Shown piece after piece: positions 3,313 through 39,118 of a stretch of 43,530 nucleotides of DNA. Position numbers and translations under genes: made by a program. Below the pieces are notes generated by a model. That model did not search any database. It was not told the DNA's origin and saw only the letters and a program-made list of their open reading frames with translations. Source of the stretch: Anaeromyxobacter soli (GTDB lineage Bacteria > Myxococcota > Myxococcia > Myxococcales > Anaeromyxobacteraceae); NCBI RefSeq assembly GCF_022808855.1, contig NZ_JAKZLF010000035.1, positions 1 through 43,530 on the forward strand, given 5' to 3'. The first letter of the stretch is position 1; every line of letters starts with the position of its first letter.

Positions 3313-3485
3313 TCACGAGGCCCGCCGGCGACGCGTCATCGTGACGCGCCGGCACGATTTCTGGACCCGAGCCGTCCGCTTGCGCGGCGCGCGTGCGGGC
3401 TCGCCGCCGTCGACACGCGCGGCCGACCTGTGGTTCTCTTTTGCGCCCAGGCACTTACGCCGCAGCCCAAGGAGAAGGAAAGGCG

Positions 3486-5108
3486 ATGGCGACCCCAGCT
3501 TTCCAATACCAGGATCCGTTCCCGCTCTCGAAGGACGAGACGAAGTACCGCCTCCTCACGCGCGACGGCGTGTCGGTGGCGAGCTTCGACGGCAAGGAGG
3601 TCCTCAAGGTCGAGCCGTCCACGCTCGAGCGGCTCGCCCGCGAGGCGATCCGCGAGGTCTCGTTCTTCCTGCGGCCCTCGCACAACGAGCAGGTCGCGAA
3701 GATCCTCGGCGACCCCGAGGCCTCGCAGAACGACAAGGGCGTGGCCCTCGCGTTCCTCCGCAACGCCGAGATCGCCGCGCGCGGCGAGCTGCCCATCTGC
3801 CAGGACACCGGCACCGCGACGATCGTCGCGAAGAAGGGCCAGCAGGTCTGGACCGGCGCGAAGGACGAGGAGTGGCTCTCGAAGGGCGTCTACGCGACGT
3901 ACACCACCGAGAACCTGCGCTACTCCCAGACGGCCGCGCTCGACATGTACAAGGAGGTCAACACGGGCACGAACCTGCCCGCGCAGATCGACCTCTACGC
4001 GACCGACGGCGCCGAGTACAAGTTCCTCTTCGTCACCAAGGGCGGCGGCTCGGCCAACAAGACCCAGCTCTGGCAGGAGACGAAGGCGCTCCTCACGCCC
4101 GAGAAGCTCGAGAAGTTCCTCGTCGACAAGATGCGCCACCTCGGCACGGCGGCCTGCCCGCCGTACCACATCGCGGTGGTCGTCGGCGGCACCTCCGCCG
4201 ATCAGTGCCTCAAGACGGTGAAGCTCGCGTCGACGCGCTACTACGACGGGCTGCCGACGAAGGGCAACGAGCACGGCGTGGCGTTCCGCGACACCGAGCT
4301 CGAGGCGAAGCTACTCGAGGCGGCGAACGGGCTCGGCATCGGCGCGCAGTTCGGCGGCAAGTACTTCGCCCACGACGTCCGCGTCGTGCGCCTGCCGCGC
4401 CACGGCGCGTCCTGCCCGGTGGCGATGGCCGTCTCCTGCTCCGCCGACCGGAACGTGAAGGCCAAGATCAACAAGGAGGGCGTCTGGATCGAGGAGCTCG
4501 ATCACGCCCCGGAGCGGCTGATCCCGCTCGAGTACAAGAAGGGCAAGCACGAGCACGGCGTGAAGGTCGACCTGAACCGCCCGATGAAGGAGATCCTGGC
4601 CGAGCTGACGAAGCACCCGGTCTCGACGCCGCTCCTCCTCACCGGCACGCTCGTCGTCGCGCGCGACATCGCGCACGCGAAGTTCAAGGAGCTCATCGAT
4701 CAGGGCAAGGGCGTGCCCGAGTACCTGAAGAACCACCCCGTCTACTACGCCGGCCCGGCGAAGACCCCGCCGGGCAAGCCGTCCGGCTCGTTCGGCCCGA
4801 CGACGGCGGGGCGCATGGACTCGTACGTCGACCTGCTGCAGTCGCACGGCGCGTCGATGGTGATGATCGCGAAGGGCAACCGCAGCCAGCAGGTCACCGA
4901 CGCCTGCAAGAAGCACGGCGGGTTCTACCTCGGCTCCATCGGCGGCCCCGCCGCGGTGCTCGCCGAGGAGAACATCAAGAAGGTCGAGTGCATCGACTTC
5001 CCCGAGCTGGGCATGGAGGCGGTCTGGAAGATCCAGGTCGAGAACTTCCCGGCCTTCATCCTCGTCGACGACAAGGGGAACGACTTCTTCAAGAAGCTCG
5101 GCTGCTGA
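3486..5108 (+). CDS. fumA: Fumarate hydratase class I (iron-sulfur)
   Basis: Interconverts fumarate and L-malate in the TCA cycle using a [4Fe-4S] cluster. The 540-residue product matches the single-chain class I fumarases (E. coli FumA is 548). Cluster cysteines fall at C105 (PICQDTGT), C224 (AACPPYH) and C318 (AVSCSADR), the same positions as in E. coli FumA. The C-terminal beta-type domain has [13 protein letters not shown] and [18 protein letters not shown]. The start at 3486 follows a clear purine-rich ribosome site (AAGGAGAAGGAA, 3469-3480); the frame stays open upstream but that part looks like leader. The cluster is oxygen-sensitive, consistent with an anaerobic or microaerophilic life. 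Followed by a perfect hairpin at 5129-5150. Confidence 0.96.
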
Positions 5109-5128
5109 CCTGCTGATCCCGCGGCGGG

Positions 5129-5150
5129 CGGGCCGGAGCGCTCCGGCCCG
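5129..5150 (+). terminator. Hairpin after fumarase gene, possible terminator
   Basis: A perfect 22-bp palindrome of two 11-bp arms starts 21 bases after the fumarase stop. No T-tract follows, so it is either a Rho-assisted terminator or an mRNA 3'-end stabiliser. It is also 108 bp ahead of the aldo/keto reductase. Confidence 0.5.
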
Positions 5151-5257
5151 CGCCGCCTGCCGGGCTGCCCGCTCCAGGCGCGCGCTCCACCCGGGCGCGT
5201 GACAGCCGCGGCCCGGCTCCGTCATCAACATGCGCGGACCCTCTTGCGGGAGCGCGC

Positions 5258-6217
5258 ATGAAGACCCGTCGCCTCGGCAGCTCGGACCTCGACGTCACGG
5301 TGCTCGGCTTCGGGGCCTGGGCGGTGGGCGGCGGCCAGTGGGAATTCGCCTGGGGGCCCCAGGACGACGCCGCCTCCATCGCCGCCATCCGCCGCGCGCT
5401 CGACCGCGGCGTGAACTGGATCGACACCGCGGCGGTGTACGGCCTCGGCCACTCCGAGGAGGTCGTCGCGCGCGCGCTCGAGGGCGTGGCGCGCCGGCCG
5501 TACGTCTTCACGAAGTGCTCGATGGTCTGGGACGAGCGCGGGAAGATCGGCCGCTCGCTGCGCGCCGACTCCGTCCGGCGCGAGTGCGAGGCGAGCCTGC
5601 GGCGCCTCCGCGTGGACGCGATCGACCTCTACCAGATCCACTGGCCGGTCCAGGACCCGGCGGAGATGGACGAGGGCTGGTCCACCCTCGCGGCGCTGAA
5701 GCAGGAGGGGAAGGTCCGCTTCGTCGGCGTCTCGAACTACGACTGCGAGCAGCTCCGCCGCGCCTGCGACGTTGCGCCGGTCACGTCGGTCCAGCCGCGC
5801 TACTCGCTCCTGCACCGCGACGTCGAGCAGGATCTCTTGCCCTACTGCCGCGAGGACGGCATCGGCGTCATCGCCTACTCGCCGATGGGCGCGGGCCTCC
5901 TCTCCGGGAAGATGACGCGCGCCCGCGTCGAGGCGTTCCCGGAGGACGACTGGCGCCGGCGCAACCCCGACTTCCAGGAACCGCGGCTCTCCCGCAACCT
6001 CGCGCTGCAGGACCTGCTCGGCCGGATCGGCGCGAGACACGGCACCACCGCCGCGGCCGCGGCGGTCGCGTGGACGCTGCTGCACCCCGCCGTCACCGGC
6101 GCGATCGTCGGCGCCCGCAGCGCGGAGCAGGTGGACGGCTTCGTCGCGGCCGCGGACCTCGCGCTCACGAACGAGGACGTGGGCGAGATCGAGCGCTTCT
6201 TGCTCGAGAACCCGTAG
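5258..6217 (+). CDS. Aldo/keto reductase family oxidoreductase
   Basis: A 319-residue NAD(P)H-dependent oxidoreductase of the aldo/keto reductase TIM-barrel family. The catalytic tetrad is readable: Asp and Tyr in NWIDTAAVYGLGHSEE, Lys in VFTKCSMV, His in DLYQIHWPVQ. The cofactor side shows GVSNYDCEQL and, at the C-terminus, GAIVGARSAEQVD, the usual phosphate-binding segment. Sequence style is that of the general stress/YdhF-IolS-like AKRs that reduce small aldehydes or ketones; the actual substrate cannot be told. The ATG at 5258 is preceded by CGGGAGCGC. It stands alone between two intergenic regions and is followed by the GACCTC repeat. Confidence 0.92.
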   Translation: MKTRRLGSSDLDVTVLGFGAWAVGGGQWEFAWGPQDDAASIAAIRRALDRGVNWIDTAAVYGLGHSEEVVARALEGVARRPYVFTKCSMVWDERGKIGRSLRADSVRRECEASLRRLRVDAIDLYQIHWPVQDPAEMDEGWSTLAALKQEGKVRFVGVSNYDCEQLRRACDVAPVTSVQPRYSLLHRDVEQDLLPYCREDGIGVIAYSPMGAGLLSGKMTRARVEAFPEDDWRRRNPDFQEPRLSRNLALQDLLGRIGARHGTTAAAAAVAWTLLHPAVTGAIVGARSAEQVDGFVAAADLALTNEDVGEIERFLLENP

Positions 6218-6257
6218 CGCCGCCCACGCCGGCCGGCAGGACGGTGGCCGTCAAGAC

Positions 6258-6287
6258 GACCTCGACCTCGACCTCGACCTCGACCTC
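6258..6287. repeat. GACCTC hexanucleotide tandem repeat, five perfect copies
   Basis: Five head-to-tail copies of GACCTC lie 41 bp after the aldo/keto reductase stop. A shorter run of the same unit occurs at 11898-11914, after the cytochrome gene. In either strand and frame it would encode simple dipeptide-like repeats, but no gene covers it. Such arrays are prone to slippage. Confidence 0.85.
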
Positions 6288-6299
6288 CCAGACAGCACG

Positions 6300-6572
6300 T
6301 TCCGTGAACAAGCTTCGAGGCGCCATCCGAGGCTTGCTCGACCCCGGGAGCGCGCCGGCGCGCACACCCGGGCACCGCGAGGCGTGTTGATCCACAGCAA
6401 GCAAGAGTGAGGGGCATGCGCGAGGCGCGCGCGCATACCTTTGTGCGCGCCGTGAAGCGCAATGCCGGAGGGGGAAGCCCCCATCCGTCCGGCACGTCGC
6501 TTGATCGCAGTCACCTGAGATCTTGCGACAGCACCTAAGTTCCGGATCCTACGAGTAGGGGAGGGTTCCGTC
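6300..6572 (+). promoter_or_regulatory. Structured leader upstream of the multihaem cytochrome gene
   Basis: This gene-free stretch holds several inverted repeats that could fold in the mRNA: CAAGCTTCG/CGAGGCTTG at about 6308-6335 (one G-T pair), CCCGGG arms around the palindrome GCGCGCCGGCGCGC at about 6344-6371, GCGCGCGCA/TGTGCGCGC at about 6428-6452, and TGCCGGA/TCCGGCA enclosing GGGGGAAGCCCCC at about 6463-6496. A good ribosome site, AGGGGAGGG, sits just before the ATG at 6573. Multihaem cytochrome genes in Geobacter are often preceded by GEMM riboswitches; I looked for the GEMM core and did not find it, so the ligand, if any, is unknown. Confidence 0.4.
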
Positions 6573-9500
6573 ATGCAGTCCGGACTGGGTTCGTTGGCGC
6601 CGCCGCGCCTACCTGCGCTGCTGCTGTGCGTCGCCGCGATCTCGGCCGGTCCGCTCGCCTGCGGTAACGAGCGGAGCGTCCACGGTGATCCCGACCCCGC
6701 GACCTGCTCGCGCTGCCACGGCAGCGCCGACAACGCGGCGCCTCCGCTGTCGGTCACGGGCGGTCGCGACGCCAGCGACCCCGTCGTGGGCGCGCACCAG
6801 GTCCACGTGCGCGGCGGCCCGCTGCACGCTCCGATCGCGTGCTCCGCGTGCCACGTCGTCCCGCAGACGGTCGACGCGCCCGGCCACATCGACAACGGCC
6901 GGGAGAAGGTGACCTTCGGCGCGGTCGCGGTCATGGGCGGCGCGTCACCCCGCTGGACCCGCGAGACCGCGACCTGCAGCGGCACCTACTGCCACGGCGG
7001 GACGATGGGCGGCGGCGCTCACGTGGCGCCCGTCTGGAACCGGGGCGCCTCCGAGGCTGCCTGCGGGGCGTGCCACGGGCTCCCTCCGCCGCCACCCCAC
7101 GTGCAGAACCCCGACTGCGGGCGCTGCCACCTCGGCTACACCGCCTCGTCCGTGGTCGCCGCCACGCACGTGGACGGCAAGGTCGACGTGAAGGCGCTCG
7201 AGTGCAACACGTGCCACGGCTCGGCGACCAGCGCGGCTCCCCCCATCGGGACCGCCGGCGAGACCGCCACGACGAGCCTCGCGGTCGGCGCGCACCAGGC
7301 GCACCTGCGGGACGGCGCGGTCCGCGCGCGCCTCGGCTGCACGGACTGCCACGTCGTTCCCACCGCGGCGCTCCACGCCAACGGCGTCGCAGAGCTCACC
7401 TGGGGCGCGCTCGCGACCGCGGACGGCGCGAGCCCGTCGTTCAGCCCCGCGACCGCGACGTGCGCCGCGACCTACTGCCACGGCGCGACGCTGTCCTTCG
7501 GCGGCGGCCAGCTCACCGCGCCCGTGTGGACCCGGGTCGGCGAGGGGCAGGCCTCGTGTGGCGCGTGCCACGCCGCGCCTCCGCCGCTGCCGCACCCGCA
7601 GCGGACCGACTGCGGCCGCTGCCACCCCGGCACGTTGACCGCCGACGGCTCGGCCATCGACGTCGCCGGCGGCAAGCACATCGACGGGCACCTCGACCTC
7701 GCGCCGCTCACCTGCACGATGTGCCACGGCACGGACGGCGTGAACGCCGCGCCTCCCGCGGGCACGCACGGGGAGACCGCCACCTCCGAGCTCGCCGTCG
7801 GCGCGCACCAGCAGCACGTGCGCGACGGAAGCATTCGCAAGGCCGTGGGCTGCGCCGAGTGCCACGTCGAGCCGACCGTGCCGCTGCACTCGAACGGCGC
7901 CGTGGACCTCGCCTGGGGCGCGCTCGCCGCGAAGGGAACCGCCCCGGAGTGGACCCGCGCCAGCGGGACCTGCAGCTCGACCTACTGCCACGGCGCGACG
8001 CTCGCGCTCGGGGGCGGCACGGCGAAGGCGCCGGTCTGGACGGCCGTGTCCGACGGCCCGACCGCGTGCAACGCCTGCCACGGCGCGCCGCCTCCGTTGC
8101 CGCACCCGCAGGCCACCGACTGCGCGCGCTGCCATCCGGGGACCGTGCTCGCGACGGGCGGCATCGACGTCGCCGGCGGCCAGCACATCGACGGCATCGT
8201 GCAGGTGGAGGGCCGCGGAAGCTGCACGGCCTGCCACGGCAGGCAGGGCGTCAACCCGGCGCCGCCGTTCGGCACGCGCGGCGAGACGCTGACGACCCAG
8301 CGGCCGGTGGGCGCGCACCAGAAGCACGTGGTGGACGGCGCGATCCGCAAGGCGTTCGCGTGCAGCGACTGCCACGCGCTCGTGACGGATCTCGGAACCG
8401 AGCACGCGAACGGCACCGTCTCGATGCCGTTCACGGGCCTGGCCTCGCGAGGCACGACGCCGGTCTGGAACGGCGCGACCTGCAGCTCGACCTATTGCCA
8501 CGGCGCGACGCTCGGGGCGGGCGGGAATGCCACGGTGCCGACGTGGACCGTCGTGTCCACGAGCCCGACCCCCTGCGGCTCGTGCCACGGCGCCCCGCCG
8601 AGCGGCAATCACCCGCAGAGCGCGGACTGCGCGGCGTGTCACCCGGACACGGTGAACCCGGACGGCACGATCAACGTGGCCGGCGGGCGGCACATCGACG
8701 GCGCGATCCAGGTTTCGGGCGGATGCAGCCTGTGCCACGGCTCGGACGCGAACCCGGCGCCGCCGGTGGGCACGAAGGGCGAGACGGCCACCACGGCACG
8801 GGCCGTGGGCGCGCACCAGGCGCACGTGCGTGAGGGCGCGCTTTTCCAGGCGATGACCTGCGACGCCTGCCACCAGTTCTCCGACGCGACGCACCGGAAC
8901 GGCACGGCCGACCTCACCTGGGGAACGCTGGCCTCGAAGAACGGTGCGGTCCCGCGCTTCGACGCGACGACCCTCACGTGCACGAACTACTGCCACGGCC
9001 AGACGCTCGCCGCGGGCGGCAAGAACACCGCCCCGACCTGGACGAAGGTAGACGGGACGCAGGCGGCGTGCGGCACCTGCCACGGGGCGCCGCCGAGCGG
9101 CAATCACCCGCAGAGCGCGGACTGCGCGGCGTGTCATCCGGACACGGTGAACCCGGACGGCACGATCAAGGTGGCCGGCGGGCGGCACATCGACGGCGCG
9201 ATCCAGGTTTCGGGCGGGTGCAGCCTGTGCCACGGCTCGGATGCGAACCCGGCGCCGCCGGTGGGCACGAGGGGCGAGACGGCCACCACGGCACGGGCGG
9301 TGGGCGCGCACCAGGCGCACGTGCGCGAGGGCGCGCTCTTCCAGGCGATGACCTGCGACGCCTGCCACCAGTTCTCCGACGCGACGCACCGGAACGGCAC
9401 GGCCGACCTCACCTGGGGGACGCTGGCCTCGAAGAACGGCGCGGTCCCGCGCTTCGACGCGACGACGCTCACGTGCACGAACTACTGCCACGGGCAGACG

Positions 9501-11807
9501 CTCGCCGCGGACGGCAAGAACACGACCCCGACCTGGACGAAGGTGGACGGTACGCAGGCGGCGTGCGGCACCTGCCACGGCGCTCCGCCTGCCGGCAATC
9601 ACCCGCAGAGCGCGGACTGCGCGGCGTGTCACCCGGACACGGTGAACCCGGACGGCACGATCAACGTGGCCGGCGGACGGCACATCGACGGCGCGGTCCA
9701 GGTTTCGGGCGGGTGCAGCCTGTGCCACGGTTCGGATGCGAACCCGGCGCCGCCGGTGGGCACGAAGGGCGAGACGGCGACCACCTCGCGCGCCGTCGGC
9801 GCGCACCAGGCGCACGTGCGCGAGGGCGCGCTCTTCCAGGCGATGACCTGCGACGCGTGCCATCAGTTCTCCGACGCGACGCACCGGAACGGCACGGCCG
9901 ACCTGACCTGGGGGACGCTGGCCTCGAAGAACGGTGCGGTCCCGCGCTTCGACGCGACGACGCTCACGTGCACGAACTACTGCCACGGCCAGACGCTCGC
10001 CGCGGGCGGCTCGCTCGTGACGCCGACCTGGACGAAGGTGGACGGGACGCAGGCCGCGTGCGGCACCTGCCACGGGAGCCCGCCGACCACGAACCACCCC
10101 GACAACCCGCTCTGCAACTCCTGCCACCCGCTCACCGTCGCGATCGACGGCACGATCGACGTGGCCGGCGGCCGCCACATCGACGGAAACGTCGACGTGG
10201 CCGGCATGACGTGCAGCTCCTGCCACGGCTCGACGGACAACCCCGCGCCGCCGATCGGCACCCACCTCGAGACGGCGACCACCGCCCGCGCGGTCGGCGC
10301 GCACCAGGCGCACGTGCGGGACGGCACGCTGCGCAAGGCGCTGAGGTGCAGCGACTGCCACGTCGTGCCCACCGAGACGATCCACTCGAACGGCACGGTC
10401 GACCTCGCGTGGGGCCCGCTCGCCACGGCGGGCGAGGCGATCGCGGGCTTCGACCCGAGCGACCTCACGTGCACGAACTACTGCCACGGCCAGACGCTCG
10501 CCGCGGGCGGCAAGAACACGACCCCGATCTGGACGAGGGTCGACGGCACGCAGGCTGCCTGCGGCACCTGCCACGGTGCGCCGCCGCCTGCGCCGCACCC
10601 GACCTCCTCCCCCACCGGATGCGCAGGCTGTCACCCCGACACCGTGAAGCCCGACGGCTCGATCGACGTCGAGGGCGGACATCACATCGACGGCAAGCTC
10701 GACGCGACGGGCAAGTGCGGCGCCTGCCACGGGGTCCCGCCCGCCAACGGCGCCCACCTCGCCCACGCGGCGTTCCCGACGCCGGACGTGCCCCAATACG
10801 GCGATCTCCGCATCCTGGAGGCCTACGCGCCGGGCGGCGCCTCGGGCTACCAGTTCGGCTGCGGCAACTGCCACCCGCTCGACGCGGCGAAGCACATGGA
10901 CCTGAAGGTCGAGGTGGAGCTCACGCCGGCGGGCGCGGCGACGGGCTCCCTGCGCGCGCGGAACGCGCCGGACGCCGTGTACGACGCGGCCACCGGCCGG
11001 TGCAGCGGCGTCTACTGCCACTCGTCGGGCCAGGCGCTCCCCGCGTACGCGACGGCGCCCGCCTGGACCTCCGGCGCGGCGCTCGGGTGCGACGGCTGCC
11101 ACGGCAACCCGCCGAGCTACGCCTCCGGCGGCGCCGGCGCCCTCGACGCGAACGCCCACATCGGCCTCACCGAGCAGGGGCGCGAGTTCGGCCACTACGT
11201 CGGTCTCGGCGGCCCGGCGCACGCGAGCAAGCACGGCAGTGCCGTGGCCGGCGAGGCGGCGGCGCCCGTCACCTGCCAGACCTGCCACTACGCGACGACC
11301 GATCCCACGGCGACGGGGCCCTCTCGCTTCTACTGGCTCGACACGACCGGGAGCTACGTGCTCGCGGGCGGCGATCCCGCCCGGCTCGCGGATCCGCGCT
11401 GGAAGGCGACGCAGTGCGGGACCTGCCACGTCGCCGGGGGCGCCCCGGTCGCGCGGGGCAAGGTGCTGCCGCTCACGCACGTGAACGGCCGGCGCGACGT
11501 CGTGTTCGACCCGCGCACCGCGCTCCCGCCGCTCGCCGGCCTGCCGGCGGCGCCGAACACGCCGACGCGCCCGTACTGGGTCTCGCCCTCGCGGTTCTGC
11601 GAGGCCGTCCCGGCCGGCGCGGTCCTCGACGGCACGACGCTCTCCATCGAGCTGTCGGGCGCCGCGTACGACCCGGCGACGAAGCGCTGCTCCGGGGTGG
11701 CCTGCCACCTCGGCGACGCGCCGGTGTGGGGCCGGCAGTACCTCGTGAGCCCCGCGTCGGGGACCGCGAGCTGCTGCCGCTGCCACTCGACGCGCTGCGG
11801 CCCGTGA
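6573..11807 (+). CDS. Giant multihaem c-type cytochrome with CXXCH / CX4CH / CX3CH repeats, putative lipoprotein
   Basis: A 1744-residue exported protein of the Geobacter CxxxxCH/CXXCH type. The N-terminus has a hydrophobic signal ending GPLAC30-G, an imperfect lipobox, so it may be an outer-membrane or surface lipoprotein. I count 38 CXXCH, six CX4CH and four CX3CH motifs (48 in all). The body is eight modules of roughly 165 residues, each with five motifs in the order CxxCHG, CxxCH, long-spaced YCH, CxxCHG, CxxCHP, plus conserved GAHQAHVR, HIDG and PTWT elements. Modules 1-4 use CX4CH and modules 5-8 use CX3CH at the third site. A non-repeated C-terminal part carries eight more motifs and ends CCRCHSTRCGP. 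Likely role: electron transfer at or beyond the outer membrane. How many motifs bind haem is not known from sequence. Confidence 0.93.
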   Translation: MQSGLGSLAPPRLPALLLCVAAISAGPLACGNERSVHGDPDPATCSRCHGSADNAAPPLSVTGGRDASDPVVGAHQVHVRGGPLHAPIACSACHVVPQTVDAPGHIDNGREKVTFGAVAVMGGASPRWTRETATCSGTYCHGGTMGGGAHVAPVWNRGASEAACGACHGLPPPPPHVQNPDCGRCHLGYTASSVVAATHVDGKVDVKALECNTCHGSATSAAPPIGTAGETATTSLAVGAHQAHLRDGAVRARLGCTDCHVVPTAALHANGVAELTWGALATADGASPSFSPATATCAATYCHGATLSFGGGQLTAPVWTRVGEGQASCGACHAAPPPLPHPQRTDCGRCHPGTLTADGSAIDVAGGKHIDGHLDLAPLTCTMCHGTDGVNAAPPAGTHGETATSELAVGAHQQHVRDGSIRKAVGCAECHVEPTVPLHSNGAVDLAWGALAAKGTAPEWTRASGTCSSTYCHGATLALGGGTAKAPVWTAVSDGPTACNACHGAPPPLPHPQATDCARCHPGTVLATGGIDVAGGQHIDGIVQVEGRGSCTACHGRQGVNPAPPFGTRGETLTTQRPVGAHQKHVVDGAIRKAFACSDCHALVTDLGTEHANGTVSMPFTGLASRGTTPVWNGATCSSTYCHGATLGAGGNATVPTWTVVSTSPTPCGSCHGAPPSGNHPQSADCAACHPDTVNPDGTINVAGGRHIDGAIQVSGGCSLCHGSDANPAPPVGTKGETATTARAVGAHQAHVREGALFQAMTCDACHQFSDATHRNGTADLTWGTLASKNGAVPRFDATTLTCTNYCHGQTLAAGGKNTAPTWTKVDGTQAACGTCHGAPPSGNHPQSADCAACHPDTVNPDGTIKVAGGRHIDGAIQVSGGCSLCHGSDANPAPPVGTRGETATTARAVGAHQAHVREGALFQAMTCDACHQFSDATHRNGTADLTWGTLASKNGAVPRFDATTLTCTNYCHGQTLAADGKNTTPTWTKVDGTQAACGTCHGAPPAGNHPQSADCAACHPDTVNPDGTINVAGGRHIDGAVQVSGGCSLCHGSDANPAPPVGTKGETATTSRAVGAHQAHVREGALFQAMTCDACHQFSDATHRNGTADLTWGTLASKNGAVPRFDATTLTCTNYCHGQTLAAGGSLVTPTWTKVDGTQAACGTCHGSPPTTNHPDNPLCNSCHPLTVAIDGTIDVAGGRHIDGNVDVAGMTCSSCHGSTDNPAPPIGTHLETATTARAVGAHQAHVRDGTLRKALRCSDCHVVPTETIHSNGTVDLAWGPLATAGEAIAGFDPSDLTCTNYCHGQTLAAGGKNTTPIWTRVDGTQAACGTCHGAPPPAPHPTSSPTGCAGCHPDTVKPDGSIDVEGGHHIDGKLDATGKCGACHGVPPANGAHLAHAAFPTPDVPQYGDLRILEAYAPGGASGYQFGCGNCHPLDAAKHMDLKVEVELTPAGAATGSLRARNAPDAVYDAATGRCSGVYCHSSGQALPAYATAPAWTSGAALGCDGCHGNPPSYASGGAGALDANAHIGLTEQGREFGHYVGLGGPAHASKHGSAVAGEAAAPVTCQTCHYATTDPTATGPSRFYWLDTTGSYVLAGGDPARLADPRWKATQCGTCHVAGGAPVARGKVLPLTHVNGRRDVVFDPRTALPPLAGLPAAPNTPTRPYWVSPSRFCEAVPAGAVLDGTTLSIELSGAAYDPATKRCSGVACHLGDAPVWGRQYLVSPASGTASCCRCHSTRCGP
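8607..10091 (+). repeat. 495-bp in-frame tandem repeat inside the cytochrome gene (three copies)
   Basis: The string AATCACCCGCAGAG recurs at 8607, 9102 and 9597, exactly 495 bp apart, and the DNA between is almost identical, synonymous positions included. The third copy drifts after about 10005. The period is 165 codons, one cytochrome module, so copies can be gained or lost without a frameshift. Near-identity at silent sites says the expansion or gene conversion is recent. Short-read assembly could collapse this array. Confidence 0.92.
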
Positions 11808-11818
11808 CGTCGGGCGTT

Positions 11819-11847
11819 CCGCCGCGCCGGAGCGCCCGGCGCGGCGG
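11819..11847 (+). terminator. Strong hairpin after the cytochrome gene
   Basis: Twelve perfect base pairs (CCGCCGCGCCGG / CCGGCGCGGCGG) with a 5-base loop begin 12 bases after the TGA. There is no T-run, so termination may need Rho, but the position is right for the end of this transcript. It also separates the gene from the convergent LysR fragment. Confidence 0.6.
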
Positions 11848-11932
11848 GGACGCGCCTGCCCCAGCGGCGCCGTTGCGCGCCTCGGGGCGGGCTTCCGTCG
11901 ACCTCGACCTCGACCCGGTCGGCTCTGCGGCC

Positions 11933-12205
11933 TCAACGCCCGCCAGTGCCCGCGCCCTTCGTGCGCTCGATGGCCATGTCGACTTCCGCGAGGATCCGCC
12001 GAGCGTGGGACAGAAGGACCTCTCCGGCGGGAAGGAGCTTCATCCCGCGCGGCGTCCGCTCGAAGAGGCGGGTTCCGAGCTCATCCTCGAGCGCGAGGAT
12101 GTGTCGCGAAAGGGGCGGCTGCGTGAGGTGAAGCTTCCGGGCGGCGCGACCGACGTGGCCCTCTTCCGCGACCGCGACGAAGGACTGGATGTACGTGAGG
12201 CTCAC
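11933..12205 (-). CDS. LysR-type DNA-binding domain only (short or truncated regulator)
   Basis: Ninety residues starting at a GTG (12205). They match the LysR winged helix-turn-helix plus the start of the linker helix: SFVAVAEEGHVGRAARKLH, LTQPPLSRHILALEDELG, RLFERTPRGMKLLPAGEVLL, then ARRILAEVDMAIERTKG. A full LysR regulator is about 300 residues and has a substrate-binding domain; here a TGA follows right after the linker and no continuation was seen in nearby frames. It is either a remnant or a genuine HTH-only protein that dimerises through the linker helix. It is divergent from the methionine aminopeptidase gene and convergent with the cytochrome gene. No target can be assigned. Confidence 0.75.
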   Translation of the reverse strand: MSLTYIQSFVAVAEEGHVGRAARKLHLTQPPLSRHILALEDELGTRLFERTPRGMKLLPAGEVLLSHARRILAEVDMAIERTKGAGTGGR

Positions 12206-12373
12206 GAGCGGAACGGTACCTGAAGGTCGGCCTGCGTGTCAGGTCGCCGAGGCCCACGGGCCGGCCCTCGAGAGGAGCTCGTGTCCGTAAGCGGATTTTC
12301 GAGCCCGCTGCAGCGGACCCGATACCGAGACAGCATTGGATCGCCGCTGCACCTTGCTGGCAGCCTTGCCAGC

Positions 12374-19515: not shown

Positions 19516-19568
19516 TGTCACGCACCGTCCGCGTGACATGTCACACGCGCACCCGTGACACCTGTGAC
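19516..19568 (+). promoter_or_regulatory. Paired palindromic upstream activator sites for the formate dehydrogenase operon
   Basis: Two inverted repeats TGTCAC-N11-GTGACA (19516-19538) and TGTCAC-N10-GTGACA (19539-19560) abut each other, and a further half-site TGTGAC is at 19563-19568. Their centres lie about 115 and 138 bp before the -24 element at 19664, the usual range for enhancer sites of sigma-54 activators. The natural candidate to bind is the Fis-HTH activator encoded next door. Confidence 0.65.
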
Positions 19569-19662
19569 GGTCCGGCCGCCTGAGGCGGCCGCCGGCCCCG
19601 CAAACTCCGTCGCGCGCCGGTTCTCCGGAACGCGGCGGCGCAACCGTTTCGCCTCCGCCCGC

Positions 19663-19678
19663 TGGCAGGTGTCTTGCT
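19663..19678 (+). promoter_or_regulatory. Sigma-54 (-24/-12) promoter of the formate dehydrogenase operon
   Basis: TGGCAG-GTGTC-TTGCT: GG and GC are separated by exactly 10 bases as RpoN requires, and the match to TGGCAC-N5-TTGCW misses one base. Transcription would start near 19689, giving a leader of about 108 bases to the ATG at 19798. An AAAAAA stretch follows at 19704-19709. Confidence 0.75.
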
Positions 19679-19797
19679 CTGGGGCGTCCCGACGCACGAA
19701 GGCCAAAAAAGACCTGAGCAGTCAGGTACATGCGGCGGTCGTCGCGAAGGCTTCGCACTCCAGCAGCAGTCGGCAGCAGTCACCGGAAAGGGAAGCG

Positions 19798-22700
19798 ATG
19801 AGCATCAGCAGAAGAAACTGGCTGAAGTTGACGGCTGGCGGCGGCACCGGCCTCGCGCTGGCCGAGCTCGGGTTCAGCGCGTCGAAGGTCCAGGCGGCGA
19901 CGGGGCACCTGAAGCTCACGGGCGCGAAGCAGTTCACCACCGCCTGTAACTTCTGCTCCTGCGGCTGCGGGATGGTCTGCAACGTGGTGGACGGCAAGCT
20001 CGTCAACCTCGAGGGAGACCCGGACCACGTCATCAACCAGGGCGCGCTCTGCTCGAAGGGCGCCGCGATGCAGGCGACCCACGAGTCCGACCGGCGCGTG
20101 AAGACGCCGCTGTACCGGGCGCCGGGCTCTGATCGCTGGCAGGAGCTCTCCTGGGAGGAGGCGCTCGAGAAGCTCGCGCGCAAGGTGAAGGACGTCCGCG
20201 ACTCGACCTGGATCGCCACCGAGCGGGACGGCGACGTCGAGTACCCGGTCAACCGCACCGACGCGATCGGCTTCCTCGGCGGCGCGCAGAACACGAACGA
20301 GGAGTGCTACCTCTGGAACAAGATGGGGAGGCTCTTCGGGACGAACTTCGTCGAGCACCAGGCCCGACTTTGACACAGCCCCACGGTCCCCAGTCTGGGG
20401 GCCACGTTCGGCCGTGGCGCGATGACGAACCACTGGGCGGATCTGCAGAACGCCAAGGTGTTCCTCATCGAGGGCAGCAACGCCGCCGAGAACCACGTGA
20501 TGTCGATGAAGTGGATCCGGAAGGCGCAGGAGAAGGGCGCGAAGATCATCCACGTCGACCCGCGGTTCAACCGCACCTCGTCGATCGCGGACATCTACGC
20601 GCGCATCCGCCCGGGCGCTGACATCGCGTTCCTCGGGGCGGTCATCAACCACGTCCTCCAGCAGGGGCTGTACGACGCGGAGTACGTGAAGCTGCACACG
20701 AACGCGCTCCTGCTCGCGAAGGACGAGTTCGCCCTCGAGGACGGCGTCTTCACCGGCTACCACGAGGACAAGCACAAGTACGACACGGCCTCGTGGGCGT
20801 ACGACCTCGACGCGGCGACGCAGAAGCCGAAGAAGGCGGCGAGCCTCGACGACCCGCGCTGCGTCTTCTCGAAGCTGAAGGCGCACTTCGCGCGGTACAC
20901 GCCCGAGGTGGCCGAGGAGATCTCCGGCGTGCCGGCGGAGCAGGTGAAGCTCATCGCCGAGACGTTCGCGAACAACCGCCCCGGCACGATCCTGTACGCG
21001 CTCGGGATGACGCAGCACACGGTGGGCATCCAGAACATCCGCTGCTACGGCATCCTGCAGCTGCTCCTCGGCAACATCGGCAAGGCCGGCGGCGGCGTGA
21101 ACGCGCTGCGCGGCGAGCCGAACGTCCAGGGCGCCTGCGACATGTCCGTCCTGAACGGCTACATGTTCGGCTACATCAACGCGCCGAACCACAACCACCC
21201 GACGCTCGAGGCGTGGACGAAGGACAACGGCACCTTCCGCCGGAAGTTCACCGTCAACGGCCTCAAGGCGTGGTTCGGCGAGAACGCCACCGCCGAGAAC
21301 GACTTCGGCTGGAGGTGGCTCCCGAAGAAGAACGGCGCGAAGGACTACACCGTCTTCGGGATGATCGACGACGCCTACGCCGGGAAGCTGAAGCTCCTGT
21401 GGGCCGTGGGTCAGAACCCGATGGTCACGAACCCGAACCTGAACTACGTGCACGAGGCGCTGTCGAAGCTCGACATGCTCGTGGTGCAGGAGCTCTGGGA
21501 CACGGAGACGGCGAGCTTCTGGCAGCGGCCGGGCGCCGACCCGAAGGCGATCAAGACCGAGGTGCTGCTCCTCCCCGCCGCCTACTTCATGGAGAAGGAG
21601 GGCACGATCAGCGGCTCCGGCCGCCTCGTGCAGTGGCGCTACGCGGCGGTGAAGCCGCCCGGCAAGGCGAAGGCCGACCTCGAGATCATCGACACGGTCT
21701 TCCGCAAGGTCCGGGACCTGTACGCGGGCTCGACGGATCCGAAGGACGAGCCGCTCGCGAAGGCGGTCTGGAACTACCCCGCCGAGCACACGGCGGAGGC
21801 GGTGCTCCAGGAGATCGGCGGCCGCGTCCTCTCGGAGGTCACGCTCCCCGACGGCAAGGTGCTGAAGCCGGGCGCCTTCGTGGGCGGCATCGGGCAGCTC
21901 CAGGCGGACGGCTCGACCTCCTCGGGCGCCTGGATCTACGCGGGCGTCTTCGGCGGCGGGAAGAACCTCTCGAAGCGCCGCGACGCGAAGACCGATCCCT
22001 CGGGGCTCGGCATGTTCCCGGGCTTCGCGTGGACCTGGCCGGGCAACATGAAGATCCTCTACAACCGCGCCTCCTGCGACGCGGACGGCAAGCCCTGGCC
22101 CGGCACGACTCCGCTCGTCTGGTGGGACGCGACCGAGAAGAAGTGGAAGGGCGTGGACACGCCGGACGTGCCGGACGCCACGAAGGGCCCGGAGACGCCG
22201 GAGGGCCAGCGCGCGTTCCGCATGAACGGCGAGGGCATCGGCCGGCTCATGGCGGCGGTCTACAAGGACCCCGACGCCAAGGAGAAGGGGCTGCCGCGCG
22301 ACGGCTCGTACACGCCGAAGGACGGCCCGTTCCCCGAGTTCTACGAGCCCATCGAGAGCCCGGTCGCGAACGTGCTGCACCCGAAGGCCCAGCACAACCC
22401 GTGCGTGAAGTACCCGCGCGTCCCGGGCAAGCAGCCCGTCGGCACGGCGAAGGACTTCCCGTACGTCCTCATGACGTCCTCCATCGCGGAGCACTGGTGC
22501 GCCGGGTCCACGACCCGCAACGTGCCGTGGCTCAACGAGCTGCAGCCGGAGTGCGTCGTCGAGCTGCCGACCCAGCTCGCCGAGAAGCTGCGCGTGAAGG
22601 GCGGCGACAAGGTGCGGGTCTCGTCGGCGCGCGGTGAGATGGTCGTGAAGGCCGTCGTCACGAAGCGGATGCAGGTCATGAAGATCGCCGGCCAGGACGT

Positions 22701-22866
22701 GCCGGTCGTGTGGATGCCCTACAACTGGGGGTTCAAGGGGCTCTCGACCGGCCCGTCGACGAACGTGCTGACCATCGACGCCGTCGATCCGGGCGCAGGC
22801 ACGCAGGAGACGAAGGCCTGCCTCGTCAACGTGGTGCCCGTGGAGGAGGCGGTGGCGCAGCGGTAG
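19798..22866 (+). CDS. fdnG: Formate dehydrogenase catalytic subunit, selenocysteine-containing, Tat-exported
   Basis: Oxidises formate to CO2 at a bis-MGD Mo/W site in the periplasm. The frame runs through an in-frame TGA (20371-20373) read as selenocysteine, Sec192, in the context EHQARL-U-HSPTV, exactly where FdnG/FdhF enzymes carry it. The full product is 1022 residues (E. coli FdnG 1015). N-terminus: twin-arginine signal SRRNWLKLTAGG. [4Fe-4S] ligands are C50, C53, C57 and C85. Downstream are NHWADLQNAKVFLIEGSNAAENH and the C-terminal cofactor domain with EHWCAGSTTRNVPWLNELQPE. The ATG at 19798 follows GGAAAGGGAAG. Gene callers that ignore Sec would split it into 19798-20373 and 20422-22866. 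First gene of the operon with the fused membrane subunit. Confidence 0.95.
20371..20403 (+). promoter_or_regulatory. UGA selenocysteine codon with bacterial SECIS hairpin
   Basis: Eleven bases after the TGA a hairpin begins (GGTCCCCA / TGGGGGCC, 20385-20403) with apex GTC and one U-G pair or bulge at T20387. In E. coli fdhF the TGA is likewise followed by 11 bases and then a short stem whose loop contains GGUC with a bulged U. The match in distance and shape supports SelB-dependent recoding. Confidence 0.85.
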
Positions 22867-34942: not shown

Positions 34943-36040
<1,098 letters not shown>

Positions 36041-36067
36041 CGCAGGGCACGGGCGAGGAGAACGACG

Positions 36068-37513
36068 ATGTCCAATTCGGTGAAATCGGTCGACGGCATC
36101 ACGAAGGAGTCGACCCAGGCGATGATCGACCGGACGCTCGAGGCGTATCCGGAGAAGGGGAAGAAGAAGCGCGCGCCACACCTCGCCCCGAACGACCAGG
36201 CGTCGGGCAGCGCCTGCGTGAAGTCGAACAGGAAGACGGTCCCCGGCGTCATGAGCGCCCGCGGCTGCGCCTACGCGGGCGCCAAGGGCGTCGTGTGGGG
36301 GCCGATCCGCGACATGGTCCACGTCTCCCACGGGCCGGTCGGCTGCGGCTGGTACTCGTGGGGCACGCGCCGCAACCTCATGAGCGGCGTGAACGGCGTC
36401 TCCAACTTCGCGATGCAGTTCACCTCCGACTTCCAGGAGAAGGACATCGTCTACGGCGGGGACAAGAAGCTCGCCGTCCTCCTGCGGGAGGCGAAGGAGC
36501 TCTTCCCGCTCGCCAAGGGCATCTCCGTGCTGTCGGAGTGCCCGGTCGGCCTCATCGGCGACGACATCAACGCCGTCGCCAAGCAGATGTCGAAGGAGCT
36601 CGACCTCCCGGTCATCCCCTGCAACTGCGAGGGCTTCCGCGGCGTCTCGCAGTCGCTCGGGCACCACATCTCCAACGACACGATCCGCGACTACATCATC
36701 GAGACGCGCGAGTTCTCCGAGCCGGAGACGCCGTACGACATCGCCCTCATCGGCGAGTACAACATCGGCGGCGACGCGTGGTCGACGAAGCCGCTCCTGG
36801 AGGAGTGCGGCTTCAACGTGAAGGCCGTCTGGACGGGCGACGGCCAGATGGAGCACATCGCGGCGACGCACGAGGTGAAGCTCAACGTCATCCACTGCTA
36901 CCGCTCCATGAACTACATGTGCAAGGTCATGGAGGAGAAGTACGGCGTGCCGTGGATCGAGCTGAACTTCTTCGGGCCGACGAAGATCAAGGAGAGCCTG
37001 CGCAAGCTCGCCGAGCGGTTCGACGACCGGATCAAGGCGAACGTGGAGAAGGTCATCGCCAGGTACGATCCCATGATGCAGAAGGTGATCGAGGAGGTCC
37101 GGCCCCGCCTCGAGGGCAAGAAGGTCATGCTGTACGTCGGCGGCCTGCGACCGCGCCACACCGTCAGCGCCTACGAGGACCTCGGCATGGTCGTCGTCGG
37201 CTCCGGCTACGAGTTCGCCCACGCGGACGACTACGACCGGACCGCCCCCGAGATGCCCGACGCGACGGTCATCTACGACGACGCCTCCGAGTACGAGCTC
37301 GAGCGGTTCGTCCACGACCTGAAGCCGGACCTCGTCGCCTCCGGCATCAAGGAGAAGTACCTGTTCCAGAAGATGGGGCTGCCCTTCCGGCAGATGCACA
37401 GCTGGGACTACTCCGGCCCGTACCACGGGTACAAGGGCTTCCCGATCTTCGCGCGCGACATCGACATGGCGATCAACAGCCCGACCTGGGGCTTCGTGAA
37501 GTCGCCGTTCTAG
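36068..37513 (+). CDS. nifD: Nitrogenase molybdenum-iron protein alpha chain NifD
   Basis: Carries the FeMo-cofactor that reduces N2. 481 residues from ATG 36068 (GAGGAG upstream). P-cluster cysteines C67 ([11 protein letters not shown]), C93 ([11 protein letters not shown]) and C158 ([12 protein letters not shown]); cofactor ligands C277 ([10 protein letters not shown]) and H444 ([16 protein letters not shown]). The text [14 protein letters not shown] differs from the Azotobacter VGCGQYSRAGRRN and is like NifD of anaerobes such as Geobacter and Desulfovibrio. No delta subunit gene (vnfG/anfG) follows, which supports the molybdenum type. A short GC hairpin lies just after the stop (37519-37534). 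Confidence 0.98.
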
Positions 37514-37518
37514 CCGGA

Positions 37519-37534
37519 GGGGGCCACGGCCCCC
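37519..37534 (+). terminator. Small GC hairpin between nifD and nifK
   Basis: GGGGGCC-AC-GGCCCCC follows the nifD stop in the 93-bp gap before nifK. With no T-tract it is more likely an mRNA processing or stabilising element than a full terminator, since nifK must be made in equal amount. Confidence 0.35.
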
Positions 37535-37606
37535 GCCACCTCTCGAGACCTCGATCCGCCGTCCCGCCGGACGGAACGCCACCCGCTTGCCCGAAGGAAC
37601 CGACAC

Positions 37607-39076
37607 ATGGCGAACAACCTTGGACTGACCGTCAAACCCGTCTGCGAGATCACGCGCGAGGACGAGGAGCGGGTCCGCGCCTGGATCGACACGCCGGAGT
37701 ACCGGGAGAAGAACTTCGCGCGCCAGGCGCTGGTGGTGAACCCGGCCCACGCCTGCCAGCCGCTCGGCGCAGAGCTGTGCGCCCACGGCTTCGAGGGGAC
37801 GCTGCCGTTCGTGCACGGCTCGCAGGGCTGCGCGTCCTACTACCGCTCGACGCTGAACCGCCACTTCCGCGAGCCCGCGCCGGCGGTCTGCAGCGCCATG
37901 ACCGAGGACGGCGCGGTGTTCGGCGGGCAGAACAACCTGCACGAGGGGCTGGAGAACGCCTGCGCGCTCTACGCGCCGAAGATGATCGCCATCTTCACCT
38001 CCTGCATGCCGGAGATCATCGGCGACGACGTCTCGTCGTTCCTGAAGAACGCGAGGGCCAAGGGGCACCTCCCGAAGGACCTCCCGGCCCCCTACGCCAA
38101 CACCCCCAGCTTCAGCGGCTCCCACGTCCACGGCTACGACGCCATGCTCGGCGCCATCCTCGAGACCCTGACCGAGGGGAGGGCGGTGGAGGGGCGCTGC
38201 ACCGGCAAGCTCAACTTCATCGCCGGCTTCGACGCGAACACCGGCAATTACCGTGAGTACAAGCGGATCTTCGAGGCCTTCGGGATCCCGTACACCTTCC
38301 TCGCCGACATCTCCGAGACGTTCGACTCCCCCCTCGACGGCACCTACCGCCTGTATCCGGGCGGCACCCCGCTCGAGGAGGCGGCCGACTCCATCAACGG
38401 CAAGGCGACGCTCTCCGTCGCGCCCTACGCCACCACCAAGACCTTCGGGTGGGTGAAGGAGAACTACTCCGGCAAGCACGTCTCCATGCCGATGCCGATG
38501 GGCATCGCCAAGACGGACGCCTTCCTCCTGAAGCTCTCGGAGCTGTTCGAGAAGCCGGTGCCGGACGCGCTCGCGGCGGAGCGCGGCCGGGCGGTGGACG
38601 CGATGACCGACGCCCACCAGTACGTCCACGGGAAGCGGTTCGCCGTCTACGGCGACTCCGACTACCTCCTCGGCTACGTCTCCTTCCTGCTCGAGATGGG
38701 CGCGAGGCCCGTCCACGTCCTCTGCTCGAAGGGCTCGAAGAAGCTGGAGAAGGAGCTCCACTCGCTGCTCGACGCCTCGCCCTACGGCAAGGACGGGAAG
38801 GTCTACATGAACAAGGACCTGTGGCACCTGCGGTCCCTGCTCGTGACGGAGCCGGTGGACGCGCTCATCGGCGACACGCACGGCAAGTTCGCCGCGCGCG
38901 ACGCGAAGATCCCGCTCTTCCGCTTCGGCTTCCCCATCTTCGACCGCGTCAACAGGCACCGCTACCCGCTCGTCGGCTACCAGGGCGTCGTCAACATGGT
39001 CACCGAGATCTGCAACAAGTTCATCGATCTCCAGGACGACGGCTGCGAGGACCGCTTCTTCGAGATGATGCGGTAG
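37607..39076 (+). CDS. nifK: Nitrogenase molybdenum-iron protein beta chain NifK
   Basis: Partner of NifD in the alpha2beta2 MoFe protein, sharing the P-cluster. 489 residues from ATG 37607 with GAAGGA upstream. P-cluster cysteines are C50 (AHACQPLGAE), C75 (GSQGCASYYR) and C133 (FTSCMPEIIGDD), with the serine-bearing SFSGSHVHGYD further on. The N-terminal extension is short compared with Azotobacter NifK (523), as in other anaerobe-type NifK. The end FFEMMR is followed 42 bp later by nifEN. No oddities in codon use. Confidence 0.98.
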   Translation: MANNLGLTVKPVCEITREDEERVRAWIDTPEYREKNFARQALVVNPAHACQPLGAELCAHGFEGTLPFVHGSQGCASYYRSTLNRHFREPAPAVCSAMTEDGAVFGGQNNLHEGLENACALYAPKMIAIFTSCMPEIIGDDVSSFLKNARAKGHLPKDLPAPYANTPSFSGSHVHGYDAMLGAILETLTEGRAVEGRCTGKLNFIAGFDANTGNYREYKRIFEAFGIPYTFLADISETFDSPLDGTYRLYPGGTPLEEAADSINGKATLSVAPYATTKTFGWVKENYSGKHVSMPMPMGIAKTDAFLLKLSELFEKPVPDALAAERGRAVDAMTDAHQYVHGKRFAVYGDSDYLLGYVSFLLEMGARPVHVLCSKGSKKLEKELHSLLDASPYGKDGKVYMNKDLWHLRSLLVTEPVDALIGDTHGKFAARDAKIPLFRFGFPIFDRVNRHRYPLVGYQGVVNMVTEICNKFIDLQDDGCEDRFFEMMR

Positions 39077-39118
39077 CGGCCGCGCTCGATCCCGACCCCG
39101 AACCCGAGCGAGGCGGCC

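What the first reader, a model, noticed from the sequence alone, without database searches (positions are those of the whole stretch)
6573..11807. A putative lipoprotein with 48 haem-type motifs in eight repeated modules
Seen: 38 CXXCH, six CX4CH and four CX3CH motifs in one 1744-residue exported chain. Known: Geobacter-type proteins of this family carry CXXCH with CX4CH sites, and extracellular multihaem cytochromes can form conductive filaments. Inferred: evenly repeated modules of about 165 residues with five motifs each could stack into a long electron path or filament at the cell surface.
Basis: partly seen in the sequence, partly recalled or inferred. Interest (0 to 1): 0.7.

Follow-up and report, generated by a model that had tools for sequence, protein, structure and literature searches.

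The report
Modular 48-haem surface electron-carrier lipoprotein
A soil bacterium related to Anaeromyxobacter carries a gene for a giant iron-containing (haem) protein built from eight similar five-haem blocks plus an eight-haem end piece, and its sister species have more or fewer blocks, as if evolution were lengthening and shortening an electron wire at the cell surface one block at a time.

Summary
It is eight ~165-residue pentahaem modules plus a distinct 8-haem C-terminal cap. Every module keeps 10 Cys and 10 His (5 motif, 5 candidate distal ligands), so bis-His ligation is likely. It belongs to the known CxxxxCH/CxxCH cytochrome family (TIGR01904). 48 is not a record: syntenic orthologues in A. 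terrae SG22 and another Anaeromyxobacter carry 58, and this genome has a 61-haem frame; a 40-haem A. dehalogenans protein was reported in 2008. New here: many cap-bearing relatives follow haems = 5n+8 (n = 0, 1, 2, 3, 8, 10). Outer modules are orthologous; inner ones duplicate or drop out per species by 495-498-bp units. In three other genomes a cap-bearing cytochrome directly follows a porin-like gene and an 11-haem exported cytochrome, the layout of porin-cytochrome conduits; this genome has a kindred porin-like/12-haem pair lacking a surface cytochrome. Best reading: an outer-membrane lipoprotein extending such a conduit outward (or storing charge). Continuous haem spacing and filament formation were not shown: AlphaFold models were poor (pLDDT 57-61).

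The parts
6557..6565 (+). ribosome-binding-like AGGGGAGGG
   Evidence: read directly
6573..6659 (+). signal peptide, hydrophobic stretch ending ...AISAGPLA before C30
   Evidence: translation; conserved in both orthologues
6660..6662 (+). Cys30, candidate lipidated cysteine (not in any haem motif; lipobox GPLAC has Pro at -3)
   Evidence: one search list of Cys outside motifs; orthologues GPLAC and GPLGC; many relatives have a good lipobox
6687..7184 (+). pentahaem module 1 (orthologous in three species)
   Evidence: tree
7185..7694 (+). pentahaem module 2 (orthologous)
7695..8204 (+). pentahaem module 3 (orthologous)
8205..8705 (+). pentahaem module 4 (type expanded to several copies in the orthologues)
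8706..9200 (+). pentahaem module 5, recent tandem duplicate (495 bp)
   Evidence: 95% DNA identity to module 6
9201..9695 (+). pentahaem module 6, recent tandem duplicate (495 bp)
9696..10193 (+). pentahaem module 7, tandem duplicate
10194..10697 (+). pentahaem module 8 (closest to the last module of both orthologues)
   Evidence: 79% and 67% identity to the last module of the two orthologues; pairs with G008_m10 in the tree, not starred
10698..11804 (+). 8-haem C-terminal cap, shared by Myxococcota relatives with 0-10 modules

Best explanation
An exported, probably outer-membrane-anchored multihaem c-type cytochrome of the CxxxxCH/CxxCH family. It works as a variable-length electron conductor (with charge storage) that carries electrons from an outer-membrane porin-cytochrome conduit out to minerals, humics or other acceptors. 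The 8-haem cap is the conserved functional end; the array of pentahaem, bis-His modules between the N-terminal lipid anchor and the cap sets the length, and module number changes by unequal recombination between near-identical 495-498-bp repeats. Shown: motif count, module and cap architecture, conserved ligand residues, family membership, copy-number differences in syntenic orthologues, purifying selection on duplicated modules, gene neighbourhood of relatives. Inferred: lipidation, surface location, haem ligation state, continuous haem path, conduit partner, reach or capacitor function.
For: 48 motifs. TIGR01904 E=8e-114, PF14522 E=9e-51, PF09698 E=3e-21. All 28 modules of the three long orthologues keep 10 Cys and the ten His columns, 5 of them non-motif; only 10 Met in the chain, so bis-His is likely. 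Orthologues between the same aldo/keto-reductase and Usp genes have 10 modules + cap = 58 haems. Cap relatives with n = 0, 1, 2, 3 modules. Tree: modules 1-3 group by position across species, inner modules group largely within species; recent duplicates dN/dS 0.13-0.36. In G163, G055 and G007 a 23-, 18- or 13-haem cap protein directly follows an 11-haem exported cytochrome and a homologous ~510-560-aa porin-like gene. Own genome has a 483-aa porin-like + 12-haem gene pair, the latter related to the 11-haem protein (hhalign 98.8%, E=6e-17), matching the published Anaeromyxobacter pcc clusters that lack a surface cytochrome (PMC4245776).
Against: In the window the gene stands alone, with no electron-transfer gene directly beside it. 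Lipobox has Pro at -3. Only three of about 25 cap relatives sit in the porin cassette. The cassette porin-like protein is not detectably related to the own-genome porin-like protein and neither matches a porin family model; beta-barrel evidence is weak (amphipathicity z 1.4-3.0). The profile match between the two periplasmic cytochromes is helped by haem-motif bias. Structure predictions were poor and had no haem. No expression or protein data.
Confidence: 0.62

Rival explanations
1. Periplasmic electron capacitor: the many haems store electrons when acceptors are scarce rather than moving them outward, as proposed for the 40-haem protein of A. dehalogenans 2CP-C.
For: Haem number is high and variable, and the 2008 genome paper proposes this role (PMC2330069). 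The gene stands alone in the window. Storage needs no strict length, which fits variable copy number.
Against: Relatives sit in porin-cytochrome cassettes in the place of the outer cytochrome; lipoprotein signals are widespread among relatives. Storage and conduction do not exclude each other.
Confidence: 0.2
2. Polymeric extracellular filament: monomers stack end to end into a conductive cytochrome filament like OmcS, OmcE or OmcZ.
For: Repeated modules and high haem density (about 33 residues per haem in modules); other cytochrome filaments are known in metal reducers (PMC6584659, PMC9473688, from their abstracts).
Against: No sequence match to OmcS, OmcE or OmcZ in solved structures; one long chain with a terminal cap already supplies length; filament assembly was not testable here.
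Confidence: 0.1
3. Mostly neutral array expansion: tandem duplication adds modules without benefit and copy number drifts.
For: Inner modules turn over fast and differ between sister species.
Against: Every haem and ligand residue is intact in every module, frames are open, and dN/dS of duplicates is 0.13-0.36.
Confidence: 0.08

Closest known systems
CxxxxCH/CxxCH domain c-type cytochromes (TIGR01904 / PF09698, Geobacter and Anaeromyxobacter)
   Same: Same motif pair repeated; family model matches nine stretches at E=8e-114
   Different: Here organised as regular pentahaem modules plus a conserved 8-haem cap, with module number varying in steps of five haems
40-haem cytochrome of Anaeromyxobacter dehalogenans 2CP-C (PMC2330069)
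   Same: Giant multihaem protein of the same genus; a 40-haem protein of the same domain family was seen here in G001
   Different: Different locus, and the 40-haem protein seen here does not end in the 8-haem cap spacing pattern
PCC3 porin-cytochrome systems of Gallionellaceae (PMC10734462)
   Same: Surface multihaem partner of variable haem number (10-35) behind a porin and a periplasmic multihaem cytochrome
   Different: Homology to the present protein not tested; window gene is not clustered with a porin
GSU1996 dodecahaem cytochrome, Geobacter sulfurreducens (PDB 3OUE; PMC10138318)
   Same: Tandem c7-like haem domains in one chain; weak sequence match E=0.01
   Different: Triheme domains with one His-Met haem each; here pentahaem, probably all bis-His, with CX3-4CH sites
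OmcS / OmcE / OmcZ filaments
   Same: Proposed long-range extracellular electron transfer
   Different: Polymers of small cytochromes; no sequence match found

Membership tests
TIGR01904 CxxxxCH/CxxCH cytochromes | Family HMM above curated cut-off | tested here: met
   371.5 bits against cut-off 27, nine stretches
TIGR01904 CxxxxCH/CxxCH cytochromes | CX4CH site followed by CXXCH | tested here: met
   Present in the modules as haems 3 and 4; CX3CH replaces CX4CH in modules 5-8
Porin-cytochrome (PCC) outer-surface cytochrome | Encoded with a porin-like protein and a periplasmic multihaem cytochrome | tested here: not met
   Not met in the window or its orthologues; met by three cap-family relatives
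Porin-cytochrome (PCC) outer-surface cytochrome | Exported lipoprotein | tested here: inconclusive
   Signal peptide and conserved non-haem Cys30, but Pro at -3 of the lipobox
Porin-cytochrome (PCC) outer-surface cytochrome | Surface exposure | not testable with these tools
   Needs surface proteolysis or labelling
GSU1996-type c7 nanowire cytochrome | Tandem triheme c7 domains with a His-Met haem | tested here: not met
   Five haems per module, five conserved distal His candidates, no conserved Met
OmcS/OmcE/OmcZ filament subunits | Sequence homology to a filament subunit | tested here: not met
   No match at E<=1 in PDB sequences
OmcS/OmcE/OmcZ filament subunits | Polymerises into a filament | not testable with these tools
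   Needs cryo-EM
MtrC/OmcA decahaem surface cytochromes | MtrC-like domains II/IV (PF22113) above cut-off | tested here: not met
   Not listed for the window protein; two cap relatives at 21-24 bits against cut-off 30; MtrC best PDB profile hit only E=0.004

The most novel reading that the evidence does not exclude
A length-tunable biological wire: a surface cytochrome whose reach and charge capacity are set in quanta of five haems by recombination of a 495-498-bp unit between a fixed anchor and a fixed 8-haem terminal cap, so that closely related bacteria (and perhaps cells of one population) differ in wire length.
Probability: 0.35. Interest if true: 0.75.

Novelty: new variant of a known kind. 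Interest (0 to 1): 0.5.

Why it matters
It turns giant multihaem cytochromes, usually just counted, into a natural series with 0, 1, 2, 3, 8 and 10 modules of one type on one conserved cap. That series makes an open question directly testable: whether more haems in a surface cytochrome mean longer reach, faster conduction or more stored charge. It also names a candidate for the surface cytochrome missing from the published Anaeromyxobacter porin-cytochrome clusters.

Tried and rejected
AlphaFold of three tandem modules (pLDDT 60.6, pTM 0.42) and of module 8 + cap (pLDDT 56.5, pTM 0.43): too poor to measure haem distances, and no coordinates are exposed. Foldseek and VIA-align on the triple-module model gave nothing. 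PDB profile searches gave only weak, haem-motif-driven hits. The MtrB/PioB Pfam model finds nothing in the own genome, not informative because these porins are divergent. Idea that 48 haems is a record: rejected (58 and 61 in the genus; 48 in a Nitrospirae MAG). Idea that the immediate neighbours give the function: rejected, since the flanking MetAP is specific to this species' locus and the orthologous loci share only AKR, fumarase, Usp, chemoreceptor and sigma-54 regulator genes. Promoter/terminator scan uninformative at this G+C.

Full report
Observation. The frame 6573-11807 (+) encodes 1744 residues with 38 CXXCH, 4 CX3CH and 6 CX4CH motifs; shuffling the same residues gives a mean of 0.3 CXXCH. 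The long antisense frame 6945-11936 is what 75% G+C and a repetitive gene would give and has no support of its own.

Anatomy. After a signal peptide and Cys30 (a Cys outside any haem motif), haems 1-40 form eight groups of five with spacing about 45, 42, 29, 18, 33 residues; the third haem of each group is the CX4CH or CX3CH site. Haems 41-48 have a different spacing and form a C-terminal cap. Each module has ten Cys and ten columns of conserved His, five in the motifs and five outside them, in all 28 modules of the three long orthologues. The chain has only 10 Met. Bis-His ligation throughout is therefore likely (inference), unlike GSU1996, where each domain has one His-Met haem (PMC10138318). 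In the DNA, modules 5-7 are 495-498-bp tandem repeats, 86-95% identical.

Family. NCBIfam TIGR01904 matches nine stretches at E=8e-114; Pfam PF14522 (c7) and PF09698 also match above cut-off. The nearest solved structures by sequence are GSU1996 (3oue, E=0.01) and another c7-like protein (1rwj, E=0.06).

Not a record. The same genome holds a 61-haem frame (L058), and other members of the genus hold 40-, 44-, 51- and 61-haem frames. A 40-haem protein of A. dehalogenans 2CP-C was reported in 2008 and proposed as an electron capacitor (PMC2330069).

Copy-number ladder. Orthologues lie between the same aldo/keto-reductase and Usp genes in G008 and G005 and have 10 modules + cap = 58 haems each. 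Searching with the cap alone found relatives across Myxococcota. Their haem counts are 8 (cap only; G000, G005, G008), 13 (G002, G003, G006, G007, G011, G070), 18 (G055), 23 (G163), 48 and 58: that is 5n+8. Some relatives do not fit the ladder (10, 11, 12, 15 and 22 haems). A sister group in Archangium-like genomes runs 12, 17, 37 with a 7-haem end (5n+7). More distant matches in Geobacter and Nitrospirae have up to 48 haems with irregular spacing.

Turnover. In the module tree modules 1 and 2 group by position across the three species with full support, and module 3 with moderate support. Module 8 is closest to the last modules of the orthologues (79% and 67% identity), but its grouping is not starred. 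The inner modules group largely within species: one type has one copy in the window, about four in G008 and about six in G005; a second type has three copies in the window and two in G008. This is the pattern expected of unequal recombination inside a tandem array. Recent duplicates show dN/dS 0.13-0.36 and cap orthologues 0.24-0.30, so the extra modules are under selection to stay intact. Caveat: the window genome is in 80 contigs and repeats this alike can be collapsed by short-read assembly, so 48 may be a lower bound; G005 is a single contig.

Context. In the window the gene stands alone between an aldo/keto reductase and a methionine aminopeptidase; the aminopeptidase is absent from the orthologous loci. 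In three other genomes cap-bearing proteins sit in a cassette: a ~510-560-aa exported, porin-like protein, an 11-haem exported cytochrome, then the modular cytochrome. These are G163 (23 haems), G055 (18 haems) and G007, same genus (13 haems). The porin-like proteins of G163 and G055 are homologous (31%, E=1e-48), as are the 11-haem proteins (38%, E=2e-59), and both are found next to the G007 protein. This is the layout of porin-cytochrome conduits. The window's genome has, on another contig, a 483-aa porin-like gene directly followed by a 12-haem gene, the latter related to the 11-haem protein (hhalign probability 98.8, E=6e-17). G002 has the same pair. Published work describes such two-gene Anaeromyxobacter clusters (porin plus a 12- or 14-haem periplasmic cytochrome of about 340 residues) and notes that they lack an outer-membrane cytochrome (PMC4245776). 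The modular lipoprotein is a natural candidate for that missing partner. This last step is inference.

Mechanism. Most likely, electrons cross the outer membrane through the porin-like/12-haem pair, pass to the anchored modular cytochrome, run along bis-His haems through eight modules to the cap, and leave for minerals, humics or partners. If one haem spans about 1 nm, as in the 104-angstrom rod of 10-haem MtrA (PMC4245776), a fully extended chain would be of the order of 50 nm; this is a rough upper estimate. Storage of charge is a compatible second role. Polymerisation is possible but nothing here supports it.

Limits. The porin assignment rests on gene layout, near lack of Cys, weak beta amphipathicity and the published annotation of the Anaeromyxobacter cluster. 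The lipobox of the window protein has proline at -3 and is imperfect, though the Cys is conserved in both orthologues and many relatives have good lipoboxes.

Verdict. A real and well-preserved giant cytochrome, member of a known family, with an architecture (module ladder plus fixed cap, species-level copy-number turnover, porin-cytochrome neighbourhood in relatives) that I did not find described in the papers searched.

Noticed in passing
window 19555-22866 +: Formate dehydrogenase-N alpha gene split by an in-frame TGA at 20371-20373 in the context EHQARL-U-HSPTVPSLGATFGRGAMTNHW, which looks like the usual selenocysteine site of this enzyme.
   Followed up: partly
window 35045-41872 +: Four reading frames that look like nitrogenase genes (nifH, nifD, nifK and a 917-aa NifEN-like frame) from their N-termini; not searched.
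   Followed up: no
window 11924-12213 -: A short LysR-type helix-turn-helix-like fragment between the cytochrome and the methionine aminopeptidase; the aminopeptidase is absent from the orthologous loci.
   Followed up: partly
L058 (G000:C1:112000-128000) 3463-9609: A second giant frame of the same domain family with 61 haem motifs, conserved in G008 (61) and shortened in G005 (51), overlapping a long frame with 19 motifs.
   Followed up: partly
L057 (G000:C1:80000-97000): Cluster of further multihaem frames (27, 26, 19, 16 and 10 motifs) in the same genome.
   Followed up: no
L146, L147, L149, L152, L171: Archangium-like genomes carry a sister subfamily with 5n+7 haems (17 and 37); in L147, L149 and L152 the next gene is a 10-haem protein, in L147 with an MtrC/MtrF-domain match at E=8e-15.
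   Followed up: partly
L120, L128: Cap-bearing cytochromes whose N-terminus is an InlB-B-repeat-like domain (PF18998) instead of pentahaem modules, hinting that the cap is combined with adhesion-like parts.
   Followed up: partly
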